From: Planctomycetota bacterium
GTDB lineage: Bacteria; Planctomycetota; UBA8742; UBA2392
NCBI GenBank assembly: GCA_020849795.1
Contig: JADZFR010000025.1
Span: 1-64,000 of the forward strand
Direction: 5' to 3'
Length of the DNA stretch: 64,000 bases
The position numbers were made by a program, and so were the translations under genes. Shown here in pieces: positions 31,161-45,681 of this stretch. The stretch's first letter is position 1. Each line of letters starts with the position of its first letter. Under the pieces are notes generated by a model. That model searched no databases, was not told the DNA's origin, and was given only the letters and a program-made list of their open reading frames with translations.

Positions 31161-31861
31161 ATGCGTTTCTGGCAGTTACTTGCAGTCAGTGTATTGCTGG
31201 CGTGTTCGACGTACGCACTGCATGCACAGGCGGTTGGCGATGAAGTCGCCAACAAGGTGTTTTTGAATTCATGGAACACTCCCGGCGGGTTCAACGAAGT
31301 CACGGATTACCGTGGCAGCGTGTTGCTTCTGGACTGGTTTGGCACCACGTGAGGGCACTGCCAAAGCGCCGTGCCGCGCTTCAATGAGCTCAAGACGCTG
31401 TACGAGACGCAGGGGCTGGAGATTGTTGCTGCAAACTATGCGCAGAACGACACCGAGATCCAGGACTTCATCACCACTTACGGCGCAACCTACGGGATGG
31501 CGCGCGTGGCTGACGACTCCGGATACACTGTGCCGTCGTACTCGACTGTGTTTGCCATCGACAGGCAGGGGCGCTTGCTGTGGTCAGGGTCATCCAGCCT
31601 GGTGACCAACGCGATGGTGGAAGATTGGCTTTCGCCCCCCGCCGGCAAAGACGGGGGCAAGAAAGAAGAAGGTTGCAGTACAAGCCCGGCGCCAGGCGGC
31701 AGTGCAGCCGCCGCAGTGCTGGCAGCGCTGGCGGTGCTGGGCTTGCGCAGTAAACGAATCAAGGCGCGACGTGTGGGTGCATTGCGCGCCGGCAGCACGG
31801 TGGTTGGCAAGGACAGTGGCACGCCAGGGGCGCGCACTGACAGTTCCCAAGGGAGACAAGA

Positions 31862-31865
<4 letters not shown>
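31161..31865 (+). CDS. Selenoprotein candidate 1: thioredoxin-like protein, UGA at Cys position (U-G-H-C)
   Basis: 234 residues if TGA 31350-31352 is read as selenocysteine (residue 64). Signal peptide MRFWQLLAVSVLLACSTYA. A thioredoxin/TlpA fold (about 28-165) runs through the TGA: YRGSVLLLDWFGTT-U-GHCQSAVPRFNELKT, then a VPSYSTVFAID cis-proline loop and RQGRLLWSG. The frame before and after the TGA is identical and the TGA sits exactly where the first active-site Cys belongs; Cys67 is the resolving residue. A SECIS-like hairpin follows. The C-terminus has EEGC, a Gly/Ala hydrophobic helix and RSKR, like a MYXO-CTERM anchor, but 35 or so residues continue after it. Its stop overlaps the next ATG (ATGA), so the two are cotranslated. 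Probable extracytoplasmic redox protein. The alternative is a truncated 63-residue peptide. Confidence 0.85.
31364..31381 (+). promoter_or_regulatory. Candidate bacterial SECIS hairpin (selenoprotein 1)
   Basis: Perfect 6-bp stem AAGCGC (31364-31369) / GCGCTT (31376-31381) with loop CGTGCC. The loop begins 17 nt after the TGA and has G in its second position. A competing weaker pairing GGCAC (31354-31358) / GTGCC (31371-31375) exists. Confidence 0.65.
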
Positions 31866-37255: not shown

Positions 37256-38413
37256 ATGCGAACCGTGCTGTCGCTGGCCGTGCTGACACTACTGTTCCTG
37301 CCCGCCCGGGCGCAGGAACGCCCGGCTGTGAAGTTCGAGAACGTCGAGGTCAGCGGCATCACGCTCGACGCCGACGGCAAGCCGCTGGCCGGCATCTCCG
37401 TGGCCGATATGTGGAACTACGACGGAAAGTGGAGCGCCAATGGCGGCGCAAAGTCTGACGCCGAGGGCAAGTTCACGCTCACCGTCCGCACTTTTCCCGA
37501 TCAGCCGCAGCGCAGCTATCGCATCCAGGCCGGCGACGCCGACAGCAAGCTGGGCGCAGTCGCCATCGTGAAGGCCGACGCGCTCAAGAACCTGAAGTTC
37601 ACGTTGCAGCCGTTGGTCACCGTCAAAGGCACGCTCATGGGCGAAGAGGGTTTTGAGCCTGAAGCCGGAGGCTACGTCAACGTCTACTGGAAAGCCCCGC
37701 CCGTGTGGCTTTGCAGCACGCGCCTGACCACACAGAGCGCCAAGCCCGACGAAAAGGCCGTGGGCCAGGTTGTGTTTGAATTGCTGCTGCCCGTGGGCGA
37801 GTACAGCACGCTGATCAGCGCCGGAGAGGCGTTTCAGTACGCGCGGCCGGCAATCAGCACGCTGGCGGGCACGGCTGTCACGCTGGACGTGCCGCTGAAG
37901 ATTACGGCGCTGGCCAAGCACTACGGCAAGAAGGCGCCGGCGATCAACGTTGACTTCGTGCGCAACCTGCCGTCGGACATTGTGGGCAAGCGCGCCGCGC
38001 GCAAGGGCGATCCTGAACCGGTCACGCTCGACACGTTCAAGGGCCGCTGGGTGCTGCTTGAGTTCTGGGGTTTCTGGTGAGGCCCCTGCACGGGCCGCAG
38101 TTTGCCGGCACTGATGAAGTTCTGGGAAGAGCACAAAGAGCAGCAGGACAAGTTCGCGATCATCGCGATCCACAACCCCGACCAGCGGGCGGACACATTC
38201 GAGAAGCTCGACAAGCTGCTCGAGGAAAAGGGGATCATCAAGAAGTGGGGCCAGAATCTGCCGTTCACCGTGGTGCTCGACAACACCAAGACCAGCACCA
38301 CCAACTACGGCGTGCAAGCCTACCCAACCACAGTCCTGATCGACCCCGAAGGCAACGTAGTGAAAGGCGGCAGCGAAGCGATGCTGAAGCAGAAGCTGGA
38401 AGCCGCCAAGTAG
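37256..38413 (+). CDS. Selenoprotein candidate 2: carboxypeptidase-regulatory-like + thioredoxin domain, UGA at Cys position (U-G-P-C)
   Basis: 385 residues if TGA 38078-38080 is selenocysteine (residue 275). GAGGTG 5 nt upstream; signal peptide MRTVLSLAVLTLLFLPARAQ. Residues about 28-210 are carboxypeptidase-regulatory-like beta domains (GITLDADGKPLAGISVADM). The thioredoxin/TlpA domain (about 245-385) runs across the TGA: GRWVLLEFWGFW-U-GPCTGRSLPALMKFW, followed by FAIIAIHNPDQ and the cis-proline loop AYPTTVLIDPEG. The frame is unchanged and the resolving Cys is Cys278. A SECIS-like hairpin follows 13 nt after the TGA. Without recoding the product would end just before its active site. Probable periplasmic redox protein; the second gene after the aminotransferase/glyA pair. 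Confidence 0.87.
38094..38109 (+). promoter_or_regulatory. Candidate bacterial SECIS hairpin (selenoprotein 2)
   Basis: GCC-GC-AGTTT-GC-C-GGC: five base pairs with one bulged C on the 3' side; loop AGTTT begins 18 nt after the TGA with G second. A competing stem GGCCC (38081-38085) / GGGCC (38092-38096) is also possible. Confidence 0.6.
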
Positions 38414-39004
38414 AGCGCCGGGCCCTGAACTGATCTCGATGCGAGCGGAGCACCGGCAACACCAACTGCAGACAAGTGTCCCGGCCGCGCCCCAACTTGG
38501 CCACAGATCCAAGTGACGGTCCAATCAGCTGCAATTGGTTGATTAGCTTGGTGTCGGCTGCGCAGCGCTGCTGCCGCCGACGATGGTCTCGTCGATCTGC
38601 ACGCGGCCCGTGAGCGCGTCGCGTTCGCGGACATGCAGCATCTCGCGGAACTTGAGCGTCCACAGGCGCGCGGTCTTGTCGTTCACGCCAACCTGGCGCT
38701 GAAGCTGCTTGCTAGTGGCCCCGTCTTTCTCGGCGACCAGCAGGTTCGTTCGATGTGCGAACCCTGACAGCCTCAGGCCACGCAGCCGCTGATGCAGGCG
38801 CGATCTCCTTCTCCGTGAGGCATTTCACCTGGACCCTGCTGATCCACTTCGGTGCTGATCGGTTCGTCTGCCCGGCATTGAGCCGCCGCATTTCAAATCT
38901 GAAACGATTGCAGTTGCGCGCACCGCATTTGCGTGGCGAGTTTGACTTGGTGCGTGAGCGCCTGTGGTGCGCCGGCTTGAATGGGGCCAGCCCAAGGAGG
39001 AGCT
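38414..39004 (+). other. 591-bp non-coding gap with a transposase remnant
   Basis: No intact gene. The middle (38543-38770) holds a decayed IS1595-type transposase fragment on the minus strand. The last bases contain AAGGAGGAG, the ribosome site of the gene at 39005. I see no terminal inverted repeats or target duplication. Confidence 0.6.
38543..38770 (-). pseudogene. Remnant of an IS1595-family transposase
   Basis: Minus-strand translation gives NLLVAEKDGATSKQLQRQVG, then VNDKTARLWTLKFREM and LTGRVQIDETIVGG before a TAA at 38543-38545. This matches the middle of IS1595-type transposases: the helix-turn-helix (SxxQLxRxLGVxxKTA) and the first catalytic Asp of the DDE motif (VDETxVGG). The N-terminal zinc ribbon is not recognisable in frame, a stop codon occurs just upstream, and everything after the first Asp is missing. 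The element is dead. It lies next to selenoprotein 2. Confidence 0.65.
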
Positions 39005-41203
39005 ATGCGCACTTTCCTGCTGCTTGCGATGATCTATGCCGCGCCGGTGTTCGCGCAGACTGCCACCACCCCCGGCAGCATCGTGGACGAGATTCCGACC
39101 TGTCACTGTCTTGGCTTTCGCTGGCTGATCTCGGGCGACTCCGATCTCGACTGCACGGTCGCCGTGGAGTACCGCCAGGCAGGCACGACGGTGTGGCTAC
39201 CCGCGCAGCCAATGCTGCGCGTGGAGCCCGCCAGTGTCAGCGGCAATGCATTCGACCCGGGCAACCTGCTGGCGGGCAGCGTGCTGGACCTGCAGCCGGA
39301 CACTGATTACGAAATCCGGCTGACGCTGAACGATCCCGACGGCGGCGCCTCTGTGCAGACGCGCAACCTGCGTACGCGCGCGATTCCGGCTGACCCCGCT
39401 GCGCCAGTGCTCAAGTATGTCGCGCCTGGCTCGGGTGGCGGCGCGGGCTCGCAGTCCAATCCATACCTCGGCCTCGCGGCTGCGCAGGCAGGCGCGACCG
39501 CCGGCGATGTGTTCCTGCTGCAAGCGGGCACGTACTCGATTCCCAGTACCTTTACCTTTAACAGGAGCGGCACCGCCGGAAGCCCGATCGTGTGGCGCGG
39601 CGTGGATGCTGCAACCGTGATTCTCGATGGTGCGGGCAGCGCGCAGCCGGTGCTTTCGTTCTCAGGCAGCCAGCACCTGCACCTCGAGAAAGTCACCGTG
39701 CGCAACCCGCTGCGCACGGCGATCAGGGGCACGTCCACGAGAAACCTGGTGATCCGCGAGTGCGTGATTGACTGCTCGGCGGTTTCGCCGACCAGTGAAG
39801 CCTCGGGCATCCTGCTGCAGGGCGCCGGGCACGAGGGCGCGTACATTTCGCAGAACCGTATTCGCGGTAACATCGACTGGACCGGTGGCCGCAACCAGGA
39901 CGCATACGCCTGCGTGCTGCTGGGGCGCGGGCACATCATTCAATACAACGAGATCTACGACTGGTGGGACACGGCAGGCTTGGGCGGCAACGACACTACG
40001 GTCGACACCAGCGGCTGCGACATCCGCGGCAACGAGTTCCACAATGTCACCGACGACGGCATCGAAATGGACGGCGCGCGCTTCAACAATCGCATCTACG
40101 AAAACCGCTTCACCAACGTGCTGTGCGGCATCTCGTGCCAGCCGTGCCTTGCGGGGCCGACCTACATCGTGCGCAACGCGATCTACAACTACCAGCTCAA
40201 GCCGCTGAAGTTCCACATCCTCGGCAACACGCCCACAGGCATGCTGGTCTTTAACAACACGTTTGTGGGTGCTGACCCGCGCGGCATTGGCGGCGGCGAC
40301 TGGCGCAACTCGCACTTCCGCAACAACCTGTTTCTTGCCAGTGACGACTCCGGCGCGATCGCGTTTGACACCAACGCTCAGCGCTTCACGTGGGATTACA
40401 ACGGCTGGTATCAATCACCCGCGGCGTCCAACTTCGGCCGGCTTAACGGCGCCTACTACACAAGCCTGGCTGCGTTGCGTTCTGGGTTGGGACAGGAGAC
40501 GCACGGCCTGCTGGTCGACTATTCTGTATTCACCAGTGCGGCCATGCCGACACGCGGCGGTCTTGTGTATCCCTTCACCAGCGGCTTCTCGGCGCCCTAC
40601 ACGCCGGGCGCCGCAGATTTGACACTCAAGTCTGGAAGCAACGTCGCCGTCGACACGGGCATTACTCTGGCCAACATCACCGCCGGCAACGCGCCGGACC
40701 TCGGCGCCTACGAGCGCGGCGCCGGCGTGCCCGCTTACGGCCCCGCAGGTCACGGTGGCGGATCGTCAACACCCACTGCACCTTCTGCCGCCACCAATTG
40801 CACGGCATCGACGCTTTCCGGTCTGCGCATTCTTGTGAGCTTCGCCGACAACAGCAGCAATGAAGACGGTTTCCGGATTGAGCGGTCAGACGCCGGAGCG
40901 CCTTTCACCACCCTGACTACACTCGCAGCGGGCGTGACCGGATACGAAGACGCCGGTCTGACCGATGGCCTTTCTTACGGCTATCGGGTGATTGCCTTCA
41001 ACACAGTGGGCGACGCCGCGCCGTCCAACACCGCGACAGGCACGGCAGTGATCACACTGCCGGCTGGCACGGCCGGGCCGCCATCCGCTGCAGGCGGCGG
41101 CGGGTGCACGGGGGCGGGCGGCGCCGCGGGGATTCTGGCCTTGCTGCTGCTGATCGCGGCTTGTGTTTACGCGAGCTCAGCCCAGCGTTTGAAGCAGGCA
41201 TAG
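39005..41203 (+). CDS. Secreted right-handed parallel beta-helix protein with fibronectin III and C-terminal GGGGC anchor
   Basis: 732 residues; AAGGAGGAG 3 nt upstream of ATG 39005 decides the start. Signal peptide MRTFLLLAMIYAAPVFAQ. Fibronectin-like domain about 25-125; parallel beta-helix repeats about 140-560 (LHLEKVTVRNPLRTAIRGTS; RIRGNIDWTGGRNQDAY; IYENRFTNVLCGIS), a fold typical of polysaccharide lyases and adhesins; fibronectin III about 600-685; then GGGGC, a hydrophobic helix and a weakly basic end, similar to MYXO-CTERM signals. Catalytic residues cannot be identified. Its last 37 nt overlap the convergent HTH gene. Confidence 0.8.
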   Translation: MRTFLLLAMIYAAPVFAQTATTPGSIVDEIPTCHCLGFRWLISGDSDLDCTVAVEYRQAGTTVWLPAQPMLRVEPASVSGNAFDPGNLLAGSVLDLQPDTDYEIRLTLNDPDGGASVQTRNLRTRAIPADPAAPVLKYVAPGSGGGAGSQSNPYLGLAAAQAGATAGDVFLLQAGTYSIPSTFTFNRSGTAGSPIVWRGVDAATVILDGAGSAQPVLSFSGSQHLHLEKVTVRNPLRTAIRGTSTRNLVIRECVIDCSAVSPTSEASGILLQGAGHEGAYISQNRIRGNIDWTGGRNQDAYACVLLGRGHIIQYNEIYDWWDTAGLGGNDTTVDTSGCDIRGNEFHNVTDDGIEMDGARFNNRIYENRFTNVLCGISCQPCLAGPTYIVRNAIYNYQLKPLKFHILGNTPTGMLVFNNTFVGADPRGIGGGDWRNSHFRNNLFLASDDSGAIAFDTNAQRFTWDYNGWYQSPAASNFGRLNGAYYTSLAALRSGLGQETHGLLVDYSVFTSAAMPTRGGLVYPFTSGFSAPYTPGAADLTLKSGSNVAVDTGITLANITAGNAPDLGAYERGAGVPAYGPAGHGGGSSTPTAPSAATNCTASTLSGLRILVSFADNSSNEDGFRIERSDAGAPFTTLTTLAAGVTGYEDAGLTDGLSYGYRVIAFNTVGDAAPSNTATGTAVITLPAGTAGPPSAAGGGGCTGAGGAAGILALLLLIAACVYASSAQRLKQA

Positions 41204-42645
41204 CCGCCGTGGAAGTAGCTGGAGAAAAACTCCACGGCCCGGGCCCGTGCGCCCGCCATGGAATCATCGGCCAGCTCGATCACGTTGCGATGGTGTATCG
41301 CGGCGAAGTCCGGCGACAGCGTGATGTCCGTCGGCAACAACTCGACTTGGGCCAGCGTCAGCCGAAGCTGCGCGCGCGCGCGTTGCGTCAGGCGCGCTGC
41401 ACGCAGCAGTTGCGTCTTCACGATTTCTTTCAGGATGCGGGTGCGTTGCTCGATCACCGCAATGCCATCCACGAGCTTCAGCTGGGCGGTGCAGACGTTT
41501 CGCGTGGGCTGCTTCAGGACGTGCAGCAGGGCCAGCGCGCTTACGGACACCGGGTTGTCGGGCATCGCATGGGTCAGCGCGTCTTTGCGGTCGTTCGACA
41601 CACAGCGCTTCACTGCCAGCTCCAGCGTTTCCAGATCTTCCAGCCAAGCCGCAAAACGCAGGATCTGGAGCGACTTCGACGACGACATGGGCTTGTCCGC
41701 AAGGCACGTCGCTACGTCACCCAGCCCCGAGAACAGCTGCATCTTCGCGAAGTAGCCGCCGTAAAGGTCGTGGAGTACCGGCGCCGCTTCGGGCAGCGCC
41801 CGCATGACCTTGGACATGCCGCCCTGCAGGTCACCCAGGTCCATTTCCATCAGGCCGCCGGTAGCAAGCATCACGCACCAGTTGCGGCCACGCACGCCGT
41901 TGCTTAGCGCCAATGCCGCGTTGCAGATGCGCAAGGCCTCGCGCACGCGGCCCATCGCCAGCACGGCCATCACCAGGTATTGGGCGTGCAGTATGCGACG
42001 TTCGTCCATAGGCTCGCCCCAAGCCATCTGGCGGATGAACACCCTGCGGCGCCAGGCGGCACTGTTCTCGTAATCGCCGGAAAGATAGGCAAAGAAAGCG
42101 TGCTGCGCATTCAGGCGCAGCATCAACGCATCGTCGTCGCACAGGCGCGCAACCTGGTCGGCGGCTTTCAGCAACTCTGCGCCGCGTTCCAGGTCACGCT
42201 TGTCGAGCACGTTCTCCAGGTCCACGACCAGTTTTTCGAACACGGGCAGGCTGTTCTCATTCAGCTTGCGGCGCAGCTTTTCATGGTCGTCCAGTGCAGC
42301 GGATAACTCGCGCAACACGCGCAGGTGGTGCTTGCCGGTGAGCGATCCCAAACGCATGCGCGAAACCGCGCTCATGGCTTCCACCAACTCCAGCACGTTC
42401 GACGCCATCCGCTGGGTGCCCGCAGTGACGTCGGCCAGGTAGGGTGTGCCTTCCCCGGCCAGCAGCCACGCTGGGTTGACGCCCAGTTCGCGCACCAGCG
42501 ACTCGCAAAATTCCGCGGGGACCTTGCCGCCCTTCATGAAGCGGTGCACATTGGCAGGCGGGAAGCCCGTTCGGCGGCCAAGCTCGGCCTGTGAGTGAGT
42601 CTGGGCAAGGTGGTTCAGTCGTTGGCGCAGTGTGGTGGCAGGCAC
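41167..42645 (-). CDS. XRE-like HTH transcriptional regulator with long helical C-terminal domain
   Basis: 492 residues from GTG 42645, chosen because GGAGG lies 5 nt upstream; a GTG four codons earlier is the alternative. An N-terminal lambda-repressor-like HTH (about 5-65: SQAELGRRTGFPPANVHRFM) ends in LGVNPAWLLAGEG, a signature of phage-CI-like XRE regulators. Residues about 90-490 are all-helical, TPR-like (AQHAFFAYLSGDYENSAAW; RVREALRICNAALALSNG). It diverges from selenoprotein 3 (228-bp gap with inverted repeats), so it may control that gene. It overlaps the convergent beta-helix gene by 37 nt. Confidence 0.75.
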   Translation of the reverse strand: MPATTLRQRLNHLAQTHSQAELGRRTGFPPANVHRFMKGGKVPAEFCESLVRELGVNPAWLLAGEGTPYLADVTAGTQRMASNVLELVEAMSAVSRMRLGSLTGKHHLRVLRELSAALDDHEKLRRKLNENSLPVFEKLVVDLENVLDKRDLERGAELLKAADQVARLCDDDALMLRLNAQHAFFAYLSGDYENSAAWRRRVFIRQMAWGEPMDERRILHAQYLVMAVLAMGRVREALRICNAALALSNGVRGRNWCVMLATGGLMEMDLGDLQGGMSKVMRALPEAAPVLHDLYGGYFAKMQLFSGLGDVATCLADKPMSSSKSLQILRFAAWLEDLETLELAVKRCVSNDRKDALTHAMPDNPVSVSALALLHVLKQPTRNVCTAQLKLVDGIAVIEQRTRILKEIVKTQLLRAARLTQRARAQLRLTLAQVELLPTDITLSPDFAAIHHRNVIELADDSMAGARARAVEFFSSYFHGGYACFKRWAELA

Positions 42646-42672
42646 GGCATCCTCCACTTTCTGTAATGGAAT

Positions 42673-42873: not shown

Positions 42874-43854
42874 ATGAGAATTCTCTGCCTGCTGCTGCTT
42901 GCCCTGGGTTGCTCGCAACTGAGTGCGGCGGACTTCGCCATCGGCGACAACGCCCCGGACTTTGAGCTCGGTACCAACACATGGAACACGCCGCAGGGTT
43001 TGGCGCGCCTGTCGAACTATCGCGGCAAGGTTGTGCTGGTCGAAGTCTGGGCAACTTACTGAGGCCCCTGTGTGGCGGGCGTGCCCCACCTGAAAGAACT
43101 CAGCGACAAGTATCGCGAGCGCGGCTTTGAGATCATCGCTTCTACGAACGAGGACCCCGCCAAAGTCGACGAGTGGCTGGGCAAGAACCCTCTGAACTAC
43201 GGCGTCGTCTCCAAGGCCCCCGGCATCTCGGCCTACGTGAAGATGGGCCAGGGCGTGCCGCGCGGCTGGGTGATTTCCGCCGATGGCAAGATTGCCTTCA
43301 CGGGCAAGCCCGCAGACATCACGGGCGCGATGGTCGAAGGGTGGCTCAAAGACTGCGCCGACAGCAAGATCGACAAGAAACTCAAGCGCGAACTCGGTGC
43401 GGCCGTGAAGCACTACAACGCGGGCAAGTATGGCAAGGCGCTGCTGGAAGCCGAGAAGCACGAGTCCAATGAAGACGCCAGCGTTGCCGCTGACGCCAAG
43501 TTCGTGGCCGACAAAGTCCGCAAAGCCATCGACTGGCGCAAAGAAGAAGCAAAGCGCTTGCGCGATGACCGTCGCCTGACAGCGCTGGTCGCGCTGTTTG
43601 AACACGACAGCAGAGCCTATGACGGATTGGACTACGCCAACGAGTGCGCTGCCGAGGCCAAGGTCGTGAGGGCCACGTCCGAGTACAAGACGTGCAAGGC
43701 AGCCGACGAAATGCTGGCGCGCATCACCGCCACGAAAGACCTCAAGGGCGAAGCACTGGTGCGCGAGTTGGACAAGGTGATCGAGAAGTACCCCGACACA
43801 CCCGCGGGCCGCGACGCAGCGGCGCTGAAGTCCAAGGCCGCGAAAGGCAGCTAG
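42874..43854 (+). CDS. Selenoprotein candidate 3: thioredoxin-like protein, UGA at Cys position (U-G-P-C)
   Basis: 326 residues if TGA 43060-43062 is selenocysteine (residue 63). GGAGG 5 nt upstream; signal peptide MRILCLLLLALGCSQLSAA, with a possible lipobox ALGC. The TlpA/thioredoxin domain (about 20-170) spans the TGA: NYRGKVVLVEVWATY-U-GPCVAGVPHLKELSDKY, then GFEIIASTNEDPAKV and GVPRGWVISADGKI with the cis-proline. Resolving Cys66. Residues 175-326 form a Lys/Glu-rich helical extension (TPR-like). Its N-terminal part resembles selenoprotein 1 (WNTP..YRG), so the two are paralogues. A SECIS-like hairpin with a 5' bulge follows the TGA. The stop is directly followed by the next ATG, so an operon is likely. 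Confidence 0.88.
43072..43089 (+). promoter_or_regulatory. Candidate bacterial SECIS hairpin (selenoprotein 3)
   Basis: GTGG-C-GG-GCGTG-CC-CCAC: six base pairs with one bulged C on the 5' side two pairs below the loop, the same position as the bulged U in the E. coli fdhF SECIS. Loop GCGTG starts 16 nt after the TGA with G first. Confidence 0.65.
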
Positions 43855-45681
43855 ATGAAGGGAAGGCTGACATTCACGGCCATCGCATTCGCCGTCGCGG
43901 CGCTGCTGCTGTTTGCGCCGATCTCGCATGACGCCCAGAAGCGCAAATCGCGCGGCAAGAACGAGCCGGTCGAGCTGCCGCAGCCGACTTGGGGCCAGTG
44001 CTTCTGGCTGACCATCCAGCGCACCAAGTTGAAAGACGCCGCGTTCGCCACCTGGGAAGACGAGTACGCTGACATCGTGAAGCGTGTGGGCAAAGGCGGC
44101 ATGTACGTGCGCCTGAACTACGACGGCGTGCCGCTGAGCAGCGAGTTTCGCGCCGAACACGGCCTGTACGAGAGCTATGTCTGGAACAGCCCGCTCGACA
44201 GTCTGAACCCGGCATACAACACAAAAGACCGGCGCGCGCGCCAGTGGAACCAGCGCAACGAGATCGTCGACGAAAACACCGCGAACGAAAAGGGCAACCC
44301 GGCCGACGCCGACCTGACGCCCAGCTTCTATTGCCGCGAAACCTGGGACGGAATGTTCACCTACCTGCGCAACAGCGCCAAGGACTATGTGCGCCGCAGA
44401 GAGGCTGAGCGATTCACGATCTTCGCCGGACCCAACGAGTTCGAGTACGTCTTCTTCGGCGGCGACGCCTGGTATGCTGACTACTCGCCCTTTGCCGTCG
44501 CCGAGTTCCGAGACTGGCTGACGCATCGCGGGTTCTTCGCCAAGGGCCAGCCGCTCGAGGGCAAAGGCCGCCCGGGCGGTGAAGACTTCGGAGACGATCC
44601 ATCACCGGTCCGCGCCAAGGGTTCAAACAAGAGTTTCAACGCCACCTACGGCACCGACTTCACCACCTGGGAGCTGAAGTATTGGGACATTGACAAGTTC
44701 CCCAACTCGCTGCCCAAGTCCGCCAAGGGTATGCCCGGCAAAGGCGAGGCCGGCTTTATCGAGGGAGGCTTTGATTCTCCGCGCGGGCCCGGCCTGCCCA
44801 TGTGGGCGCACTACCAGAACAATGCAAAAGAGAACCCCGGCTATCGCCAGTGGCGCATCGCCGATGCCCTGCGGGAAATGCTGCGTGTGGCGGTGGAGGA
44901 GTGCGACGTTCCCAAGGCCGACATTTGGACGCGCCAGCACGGCTGCGCGTATCGCAGCTCAGGCGTCGAGTACGCGCACACGTCGCTGGCGCCGTGGATG
45001 AACGCCACATCTTTCAACAACATCGGCTTCAACCTGTACGGCATGCCGCGTGATGCCAAAGTATGGGCCGCGGTACAAAAACTGGCACAGGAGAATGGCA
45101 GCGACTGGGGCAGCTTCGAGTGTCACCCCAGCGCATTTGCGGTCCAGAAGCTGAGCACCGCTGAATACCTGCAAGCCTTGAACCTGTTCTTTGACTATGG
45201 CGCGCGCTACGTGCGATGTGTGACCTGGCTCGGCAACACCACCGGCAAAAGTGAACACGGCATGGCGCCCGGCACCATGCAAATCCGCGATACGCCGTTC
45301 GAGCCCGCGATCAAGGAATTTCTCGCGACCAAGCCGGACCGCCCGTGGAGCAGCGAGGAGGGGACTCGCTACTTCACGCCCGCACCCCGAGGCCTGAGCT
45401 TTGACGGCAGCACGCTCAAGTGGGAGCCGCGCATGTGGGAGGGCGAGAAATTCACATTCGACGACTGGGCCGCGTTCGAGCGCGTCGAGATTGCGACCTG
45501 CGACGGTGTGGAAGACGGCAAGCCCATCAACGCCAAGTCACTGGGCAAACTCGAGCGCGGTGAAGGCACAAGCTTCGTCGTCAAGGCCGCGAAGGACCTG
45601 AAGTCGTCCGTGATCGTCCGCGGTGTCTGCGACGGCAAGCTCCAGGGACCGTGGAGCAACCCCCTGGAAGTCGCGAAGTAG
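43855..45681 (+). CDS. Exported glycoside-hydrolase-like (TIM-barrel) protein
   Basis: 608 residues; the ATG directly follows the stop of selenoprotein 3. Hydrophobic N-terminal segment (LTFTAIAFAVAALLLFAPIS) acts as signal or anchor. The central part resembles GH42-type beta-galactosidases in pattern: FTIFAGPNEFEYV (Asn-Glu as candidate acid/base), DYSPFAVAEFRDWLTHRG, and later WMNATSFNNIGFNLYG and FECHPSAFAVQ. The C-terminal about 120 residues are beta-rich. Catalytic assignment is an inference from motif layout, not a firm family match. Operon position suggests that the selenoprotein serves redox maintenance of an exported protein; this enzyme has several Cys (for example EECDV, HGCAY, FECH). 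Confidence 0.55.
   Translation: MKGRLTFTAIAFAVAALLLFAPISHDAQKRKSRGKNEPVELPQPTWGQCFWLTIQRTKLKDAAFATWEDEYADIVKRVGKGGMYVRLNYDGVPLSSEFRAEHGLYESYVWNSPLDSLNPAYNTKDRRARQWNQRNEIVDENTANEKGNPADADLTPSFYCRETWDGMFTYLRNSAKDYVRRREAERFTIFAGPNEFEYVFFGGDAWYADYSPFAVAEFRDWLTHRGFFAKGQPLEGKGRPGGEDFGDDPSPVRAKGSNKSFNATYGTDFTTWELKYWDIDKFPNSLPKSAKGMPGKGEAGFIEGGFDSPRGPGLPMWAHYQNNAKENPGYRQWRIADALREMLRVAVEECDVPKADIWTRQHGCAYRSSGVEYAHTSLAPWMNATSFNNIGFNLYGMPRDAKVWAAVQKLAQENGSDWGSFECHPSAFAVQKLSTAEYLQALNLFFDYGARYVRCVTWLGNTTGKSEHGMAPGTMQIRDTPFEPAIKEFLATKPDRPWSSEEGTRYFTPAPRGLSFDGSTLKWEPRMWEGEKFTFDDWAAFERVEIATCDGVEDGKPINAKSLGKLERGEGTSFVVKAAKDLKSSVIVRGVCDGKLQGPWSNPLEVAK

What the first reader, a model, noticed from the sequence alone, without database searches (positions are those of the whole stretch)
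43040..43100. Selenoprotein 3: TGA at 43060-43062 in VWATY-U-GPC with a bulged SECIS-like hairpin
The stem GTGG-C-GG / CC-CCAC has a one-nucleotide 5' bulge two pairs below the loop, the same layout as the bulged U in fdhF. The gene is directly coupled to a glycosidase-like exported protein.
Basis: partly seen in the sequence, partly recalled or inferred. Interest (0 to 1): 0.7.

Follow-up and report, generated by a model that had tools for sequence, protein, structure and literature searches.

The report
Selenocysteine redoxin in uncultured Planctomycetota
A UGA codon in this bacterial gene almost certainly encodes the rare amino acid selenocysteine in the active site of an exported thioredoxin-like enzyme; the kind of protein is known, but this uncultured Planctomycetota lineage carries an unusually large set of them.

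Summary
The finding is real at the protein level. TGA 43060-43062 lies in frame in a 326-codon gene (42874-43854) for an exported TlpA/ResA-like redoxin. It replaces the first Cys of the CxxC active site (UGPC). The genome (Planctomycetota by its named relatives) has SelA, SelB, tRNA-Sec(UCA) and a SelD that itself carries an in-frame TGA. Across fetched homologues the site is TGA or a Cys codon, never TAA or TAG. The closest orthologue (58% identity, linked neighbours) keeps the TGA, and dN/dS is about 0.35-0.4 on both sides.

The SECIS claim is weaker. The described hairpin exists (+10..+27 after the UGA, -6.9 kcal/mol) with the right spacing and loop G. It misses the published energy limit (-7.5), is no better than synonymous recoding gives (p about 0.4), and its bulge is not conserved. 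The family as a whole does carry selected SECIS hairpins: 76% of Sec genes pass the bacterial model versus 22% of synonymous shuffles; Cys homologues sit at background (27% vs 26%).

This is a new member of a known kind (UxxC redoxin selenoprotein). The more interesting context is a lineage-wide expansion: at least 11 Sec redoxin/peroxiredoxin genes plus SelD in this genome.

The parts
42874..43854 (+). Sec-containing TlpA/ResA-like redoxin gene: 326 residues with Sec63, stop TAG
   Evidence: translation with TGA=U; PF08534 59.8 bits and PF00578 52 bits, both above cut-off; AF2 model mean pLDDT 83; Foldseek best PDB hits DsbE-like 3gl3 and ResA
42874..42930 (+). N-terminal signal-peptide-like segment (MRILCLLLLALGCSQLSA)
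   Evidence: read from the sequence (inference); similar hydrophobic leaders in the homologues of A1
43060..43062 (+). UGA codon for selenocysteine (residue 63), first position of the UGPC motif
   Evidence: TGA or Cys codon at this site in the fetched homologues, none TAA/TAG; SelA/SelB/SelD/tRNA-Sec in the genome
43069..43071 (+). resolving Cys66 codon (TGT) of the UxxC motif
   Evidence: invariant in alignment A1
43072..43089 (+). SECIS-candidate hairpin GTGG-C-GG [GCGTG] CC-CCAC; bulge C43076, loop 43079-43083, 16 nt between UGA and loop
   Evidence: -6.9 kcal/mol; best hairpin of this gene under the bacterial SECIS geometry, but misses the -7.5 limit and p 0.43 against synonymous shuffles
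43258..43260 (+). Pro129, the cis-proline position of the thioredoxin fold opposite the UxxC
   Evidence: invariant column G127/P129 in A1; cis-Pro role from general knowledge of thioredoxin folds
43348..43851 (+). C-terminal all-helical domain (residues about 159-326)
   Evidence: AF2 model, helices 172-325, mostly pLDDT above 85; residues 158-319 match the C-terminal half of NCBIfam NF041382 at 41 bits, below its cut-off of 350
43855..45681 (+). 608-aa exported protein of unassigned family, coupled to the redoxin gene (TAG|ATG)
   Evidence: no Pfam, NCBIfam or PDB match; homologues in 3 other genomes of the family, with the regulator gene nearby at every locus
41167..42657 (-). divergent HTH-like regulator, 496 aa
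   Evidence: weak HTH_31 match below cut-off; linked to the redoxin orthologue in L124/L234 (50%) and to the 608-aa family at every locus where that was found

Best explanation
This is a genuine bacterial selenoprotein gene. An exported TlpA/ResA-like redoxin, with a thioredoxin domain (about residues 23-158) and a C-terminal helical domain, carries selenocysteine in place of the N-terminal, attacking cysteine of CxxC (U63-G-P-C66). SelB with Sec-tRNA(UCA) reads UGA 43060 as Sec, directed by a hairpin starting about 10 nt downstream with its loop 16-18 nt from the UGA. Shown here by computation: reading frame, domain, machinery, conservation of TGA, purifying selection, and family-level selection on the hairpin. 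Inferred: actual Sec insertion, export, the thiol-disulfide reductase or peroxidase role, and use of this particular weak hairpin as the SECIS.
For: TGA aligns with the first Cys of CxxC; PF08534/PF00578 above cut-off. Genome has SelA (536.8 bits), SelB (333.5 bits), SelD (399.5 bits, own TGA in SHGAGUGCK) and tRNA-Sec with anticodon TCA. In 101 curated homologues 79 have TGA and 22 Cys; in a wider scan TGA 85, TGC 65, TGT 21, no TAA/TAG. The orthologue in HKST-UBA88 (58%) keeps TGA; dN/dS 0.37/0.97 before and 0.35/0.99 after it. TGA-bearing homologues go with SelB across genomes: 28 of 31 versus 5 of 12, Fisher p 0.002 (not corrected for phylogeny). The published bacterial SECIS model is met by 76% of Sec genes versus 22% of their synonymous shuffles; Cys homologues 27% versus 26%. 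MFE z -2.0 versus -0.24. Compensatory base pairs in a sister clade.
Against: This gene's own hairpin is weak (-6.9 kcal/mol) and no better than synonymous recoding (p 0.17, 0.43). Its exact structure is not conserved in the orthologue or the clade. No direct evidence of Sec insertion. Homologues are related, so the family-level tests have fewer independent observations than rows. Three genomes with TGA genes lack a SelB above cut-off, perhaps because they are incomplete.
Confidence: 0.95

Rival explanations
1. The TGA is an ordinary stop or a nonsense mutation: a 62-residue peptide, or a pseudogene, with a separate downstream ORF starting at GTG 43072.
For: Table 11 gives a stop there and an ORF 43072-43854 with a GTG start; the local hairpin is not significant by itself.
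Against: The site is TGA or Cys in the homologues and never TAA/TAG; purifying selection is equal on both sides in the orthologue pair; splitting there destroys the thioredoxin domain.
Confidence: 0.03
2. UGA is read as another amino acid (Cys or Trp) by code reassignment, not as Sec.
For: The site aligns with Cys in homologues.
Against: TGA also serves as terminal stop in members of this family, including window gene 31161-31865; in-frame TGA with coding signal on both sides is rare in the window; a full Sec machinery and tRNA-Sec(TCA) are present.
Confidence: 0.01
3. It is a selenoprotein, but the SECIS is not the fdhF-like bulged hairpin: a different pairing of the same region, such as the -8.1 kcal/mol fold of +8..+27, is what SelB recognises. 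(This rival concerns only the RNA signal and is compatible with the main explanation.)
For: The alternative is more stable; the bulge is absent in the orthologue and the described pairs form in 75% of clade cells versus 72% in shuffles.
Confidence: 0.45

Closest known systems
Redoxin family selenoprotein (PF08534, UxxC), one of the families listed in PMC13188914 from earlier surveys
   Same: same Pfam domain (above cut-off) and same UxxC motif
   Different: here an exported TlpA/ResA-like protein with an extra C-terminal helical domain, in an uncultured Planctomycetota family; direct sequence comparison with the listed representative was not made
Prx-like thiol:disulfide oxidoreductase (PF00578, UxxC/UxxU) and thiol-disulfide isomerase-like protein (cd02966, UxxC), PMC13188914
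   Same: Sec at the attacking position of CxxC in a TlpA-like fold
   Different: domain borders; the C-terminal helical domain here (not compared directly)
NCBIfam NF041054 (ResA-like WAxxUGC) and NF041382 (VPGUxxT thioredoxin-like selenoprotein, type 1)
   Same: weak profile matches over residues 9-206 and 158-319 (37.4 and 41.1 bits)
   Different: far below their cut-offs (300 and 350); the motif here is WATYUGPC, not WAxxUGC or VPGUxxT
ResA / TlpA / DsbE thiol-disulfide oxidoreductases (PDB 3gl3, 4nmu, 1st9, 1jfu)
   Same: thioredoxin fold and CxxC site
   Different: Cys in the solved proteins, Sec here; the matches cover the N-terminal domain only
E. coli fdhF SECIS
   Same: hairpin 3' of the UGA, two pairs between bulge and loop, G and U in the loop (fdhF details from general knowledge)
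   Different: bulged C, not U; weak stem; bulge not conserved in the orthologue

Membership tests
bacterial selenoprotein | in-frame UGA at a position that is Cys in homologues | tested here: met
   79 TGA / 22 Cys in 101 homologues; no TAA/TAG
bacterial selenoprotein | SelA, SelB, SelD and tRNA-Sec in the same genome | tested here: met
bacterial selenoprotein | selective constraint continues past the UGA | tested here: met
   dN/dS 0.37/0.97 upstream, 0.35/0.99 downstream versus the orthologue
bacterial selenoprotein | selenium incorporation shown biochemically | not testable with these tools
   needs 75Se or mass spectrometry
bacterial SECIS model (PMC13188914) | geometry for this gene: loop 3-9 nt, stem 4-16 bp, G in the first two loop positions, 16-37 nt from the UGA | tested here: met
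   6 bp, 5-nt loop GCGUG, spacing 16 nt
bacterial SECIS model (PMC13188914) | free energy at or below -7.5 kcal/mol for this gene | tested here: not met
   -6.9 kcal/mol for the described hairpin; a fold just outside the spacing limit gives -8.1
bacterial SECIS model (PMC13188914) | hairpin stronger than synonymous recoding, family level (added control, not part of the published model) | tested here: met
   76% pass versus 22% of shuffles for Sec genes, 27% versus 26% for Cys genes; covariation in a sister clade
fdhF-type SECIS with bulged U | bulged U two pairs below the loop, conserved | tested here: not met
   bulge is C43076; paired in the orthologue; 4 of 10 clade members form the pair below it
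TlpA/ResA-like redoxin (PF08534) | Pfam profile above gathering score | tested here: met
   59.8 bits versus 26.6
TlpA/ResA-like redoxin (PF08534) | CxxC/UxxC site and conserved Pro opposite it | tested here: met
   C66, G127, P129 invariant in A1
NF041054 / NF041382 selenoprotein families | score above NCBIfam cut-off | tested here: not met
   37.4 versus 300 and 41.1 versus 350 bits

The most novel reading that the evidence does not exclude
An uncultured Planctomycetota family has an undescribed, lineage-wide expansion of exported Sec-containing TlpA/ResA-like redoxins (at least 11 Sec redoxin/peroxiredoxin genes plus SelD here). Several Sec/Cys switches and conserved tandem Sec+Cys pairs occur in it, which would make it a selenoprotein-rich lineage outside the groups so far named as such. 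Within it, SECIS hairpins appear to have re-formed in different registers, nearly always with the loop 16-18 nt from the UGA.
Probability: 0.7. Interest if true: 0.5.

Novelty: new member of a known kind. Interest (0 to 1): 0.4.

Why it matters
Standard gene callers would split this gene and its relatives at the UGA, so these redox proteins are likely to be misannotated in Planctomycetota genomes. With Sec and Cys copies of one protein family in the same genomes, the family is a natural experiment. It already shows that hairpin stability downstream of the UGA is selected in Sec genes and absent in Cys genes, and it could be used to find which SECIS features SelB needs in this phylum.

Tried and rejected
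Rfam found nothing relevant at the site. Pfam, NCBIfam and PDB sequence searches of the 608-aa neighbour gave nothing, and its AF2 model was poor (pLDDT 44), so it was not compared by fold; the glycosidase label stays untested. Nonsense mutation/pseudogene and code reassignment were considered and rejected on conservation, selection and machinery. A strict DNA motif search for the clade hairpin was mis-specified and gave nothing. The TAG reported inside the L032 match did not hold up: the translated frame is open to its terminal TAG.

Full report
Observation. The window has TGA at 43060-43062 in frame with ATG 42874 and TAG 43852-43854; read through it gives a 326-residue protein MRILCLLLLALGCSQLSA...VEVWATYUGPCVAGVPHL.... 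A codon-bias scan of all six frames of the window for TGAs with coding signal on both sides returned only two: 38078 and this one. A third Sec gene of the same kind, at 31350, fell below that scan's threshold but was found by homology.

What the protein is. PF08534 (Redoxin, 59.8 bits) and PF00578 (52 bits) match above their cut-offs, with the UGA at the first Cys of CxxC. An AlphaFold2 model from 13 homologues (mean pLDDT 83) has a thioredoxin domain followed by an all-helical domain from about residue 170; Foldseek ranks DsbE-like 3gl3 and ResA structures first, in line with the PDB sequence search. The helical domain resembles the C-terminal half of NCBIfam NF041382, a VPGUxxT selenoprotein family, and the N-terminal part resembles NF041054 (ResA-like WAxxUGC), both far below their cut-offs. 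A hydrophobic leader suggests export (inference).

Sec machinery. The window's own assembly (94% complete) holds SelA at C7:13448, tRNA-Sec with anticodon TCA just downstream at C7:15541, SelB at C46:113643, and SelD at C3:96412 with its own in-frame TGA (SHGAGUGCK). The closest named relatives are all Planctomycetota MAGs.

Comparative evidence. Homologues occur in 51 of 60 related genomes, many with exactly one in-frame TGA. Of 101 curated homologues 79 have TGA and 22 a Cys codon; a wider scan gave TGA 85, TGC 65, TGT 21, one spurious GAG and no TAA or TAG. Random nonsense mutations would not spare TAA and TAG. The nearest orthologue (G015, isolate HKST-UBA88, 58% identity) keeps TGA and has the same neighbours nearby; dN/dS is 0.37/0.97 before and 0.35/0.99 after the TGA. 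Genomes showing TGA-bearing homologues have SelB above cut-off in 28 of 31 cases, those showing only Cys forms in 5 of 12 (Fisher p 0.002; tallied from the rows shown, phylogeny not corrected). The tree needs about 11 Sec/Cys changes, at least 7 forced by well-supported branches.

SECIS, family level. The published bacterial model (loop 3-9 nt, at least 4 bp, G in the first two loop positions, 16-37 nt from the UGA, -7.5 kcal/mol or lower; PMC13188914) was applied to each gene and to 60 synonymous recodings of it. Sec genes pass in 76% of cases against 22% for their own recodings; Cys homologues pass in 27% against 26%. A separate folding test gave mean z -2.0 for Sec and -0.24 for Cys genes. 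The loop lies 16-18 nt after the UGA in nearly all Sec genes that pass, and position +18 is G in 56 of 79 Sec genes but 4 of 22 Cys genes. In the RQLP sister clade four of seven pairs show changes on both sides and no shuffle reached the covariation score; L113 rebuilt the stem while changing amino acids. So SECIS hairpins are real and selected in this family.

SECIS, this gene. A neighbouring pairing is more stable at -8.1 with the loop one base too close. In the orthologue L032 the bulged C pairs with G and there is no bulge; sister genes L033/L034 have hardly any hairpin in this region (-1.2 kcal/mol). Counting the described pairs over the clade gives 75% paired cells against 72% in shuffles, with the pair below the bulge formed in 4 of 10. 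The comparison with fdhF is therefore geometric only.

Neighbourhood. The 608-aa gene directly downstream (TAG|ATG) has no Pfam, NCBIfam or PDB relative. It occurs in three other genomes of the family besides this one, with a homologue of the divergent regulator 41167-42657 nearby at every locus. In G015 the same three genes are together but reordered; in G005 a different Sec redoxin lies beside it; at the other two loci (G014 and a second G005 copy) no redoxin of this type was found nearby. The regulator plus 608-aa pair is thus the conserved unit and the Sec redoxin a frequent, not constant, neighbour.

How it most likely works. Sec63 attacks an exported disulfide or peroxide substrate and Cys66 resolves the selenenyl-sulfide, as in TlpA/ResA-type proteins with Cys (inference from the family). 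SelB delivers Sec-tRNA at UGA 43060, guided by the downstream hairpin (inference; the exact fold for this gene is open).

Novelty. UxxC redoxin selenoproteins are a listed family (PMC13188914). Selenoproteins in Planctomycetes from a red alga were reported before in smaller numbers (PMC4807772, six putative in one isolate). Selenoprotein-rich was defined as six or more genes (PMC5029168), and the groups named there and in the passages read of PMC13188914 do not include Planctomycetota. At least 11 Sec redoxin/peroxiredoxin genes plus SelD were seen here without an exhaustive census. No paper found in the searched library describes this expansion, which is not proof that none exists.

Noticed in passing
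window 37256-38413, TGA 38078-38080: Second Sec redoxin in the window: LLEFWGFW-U-GPC in the C-terminal part of a 385-aa protein with a carboxypeptidase-regulatory-like N-terminal region (weak match).
   Followed up: partly
window 31161-31865, TGA 31350-31352: Third Sec redoxin (WFGTT-U-GHC) ending in a stretch that matches the MYXO-CTERM sorting domain above its cut-off (24.3 versus 20 bits); its terminal stop is itself TGA, so sense and stop UGA occur in one gene.
   Followed up: partly
L062 (G000:C3:96412), L207, L211, L216: Further Sec candidates in the same genome: SelD (SHGAGUGCK), a peroxiredoxin (NTSGUTKEA), an AhpC-like protein (GVWUPFC) and another UxxC redoxin (LWUQAC).
   Followed up: partly
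L020, L078, L080, L085, L086, L088, L089, L112: Tandem pairs of a Sec copy (UxxCVKALPS) next to a Cys copy (CGPC..SMPEV) recur in several genomes of the family; the Sec copy has a nearly invariant GTGAAGGCGTTGCCTTC hairpin, the Cys copy lacks that stem.
   Followed up: partly
window 41167-42657 and 43855-45681; L231, L232, L233, L234: A regulator (HTH-like, 496 aa) and an exported 608-aa protein without any known family lie close together at all five loci found in four genomes: an undescribed gene pair.
   Followed up: partly
window 38981-41203 (C-terminus): The protein ends in GGGGCTGAGG plus a hydrophobic stretch and basic residues, like a GlyGly/MYXO-CTERM-type sorting tail.
   Followed up: no
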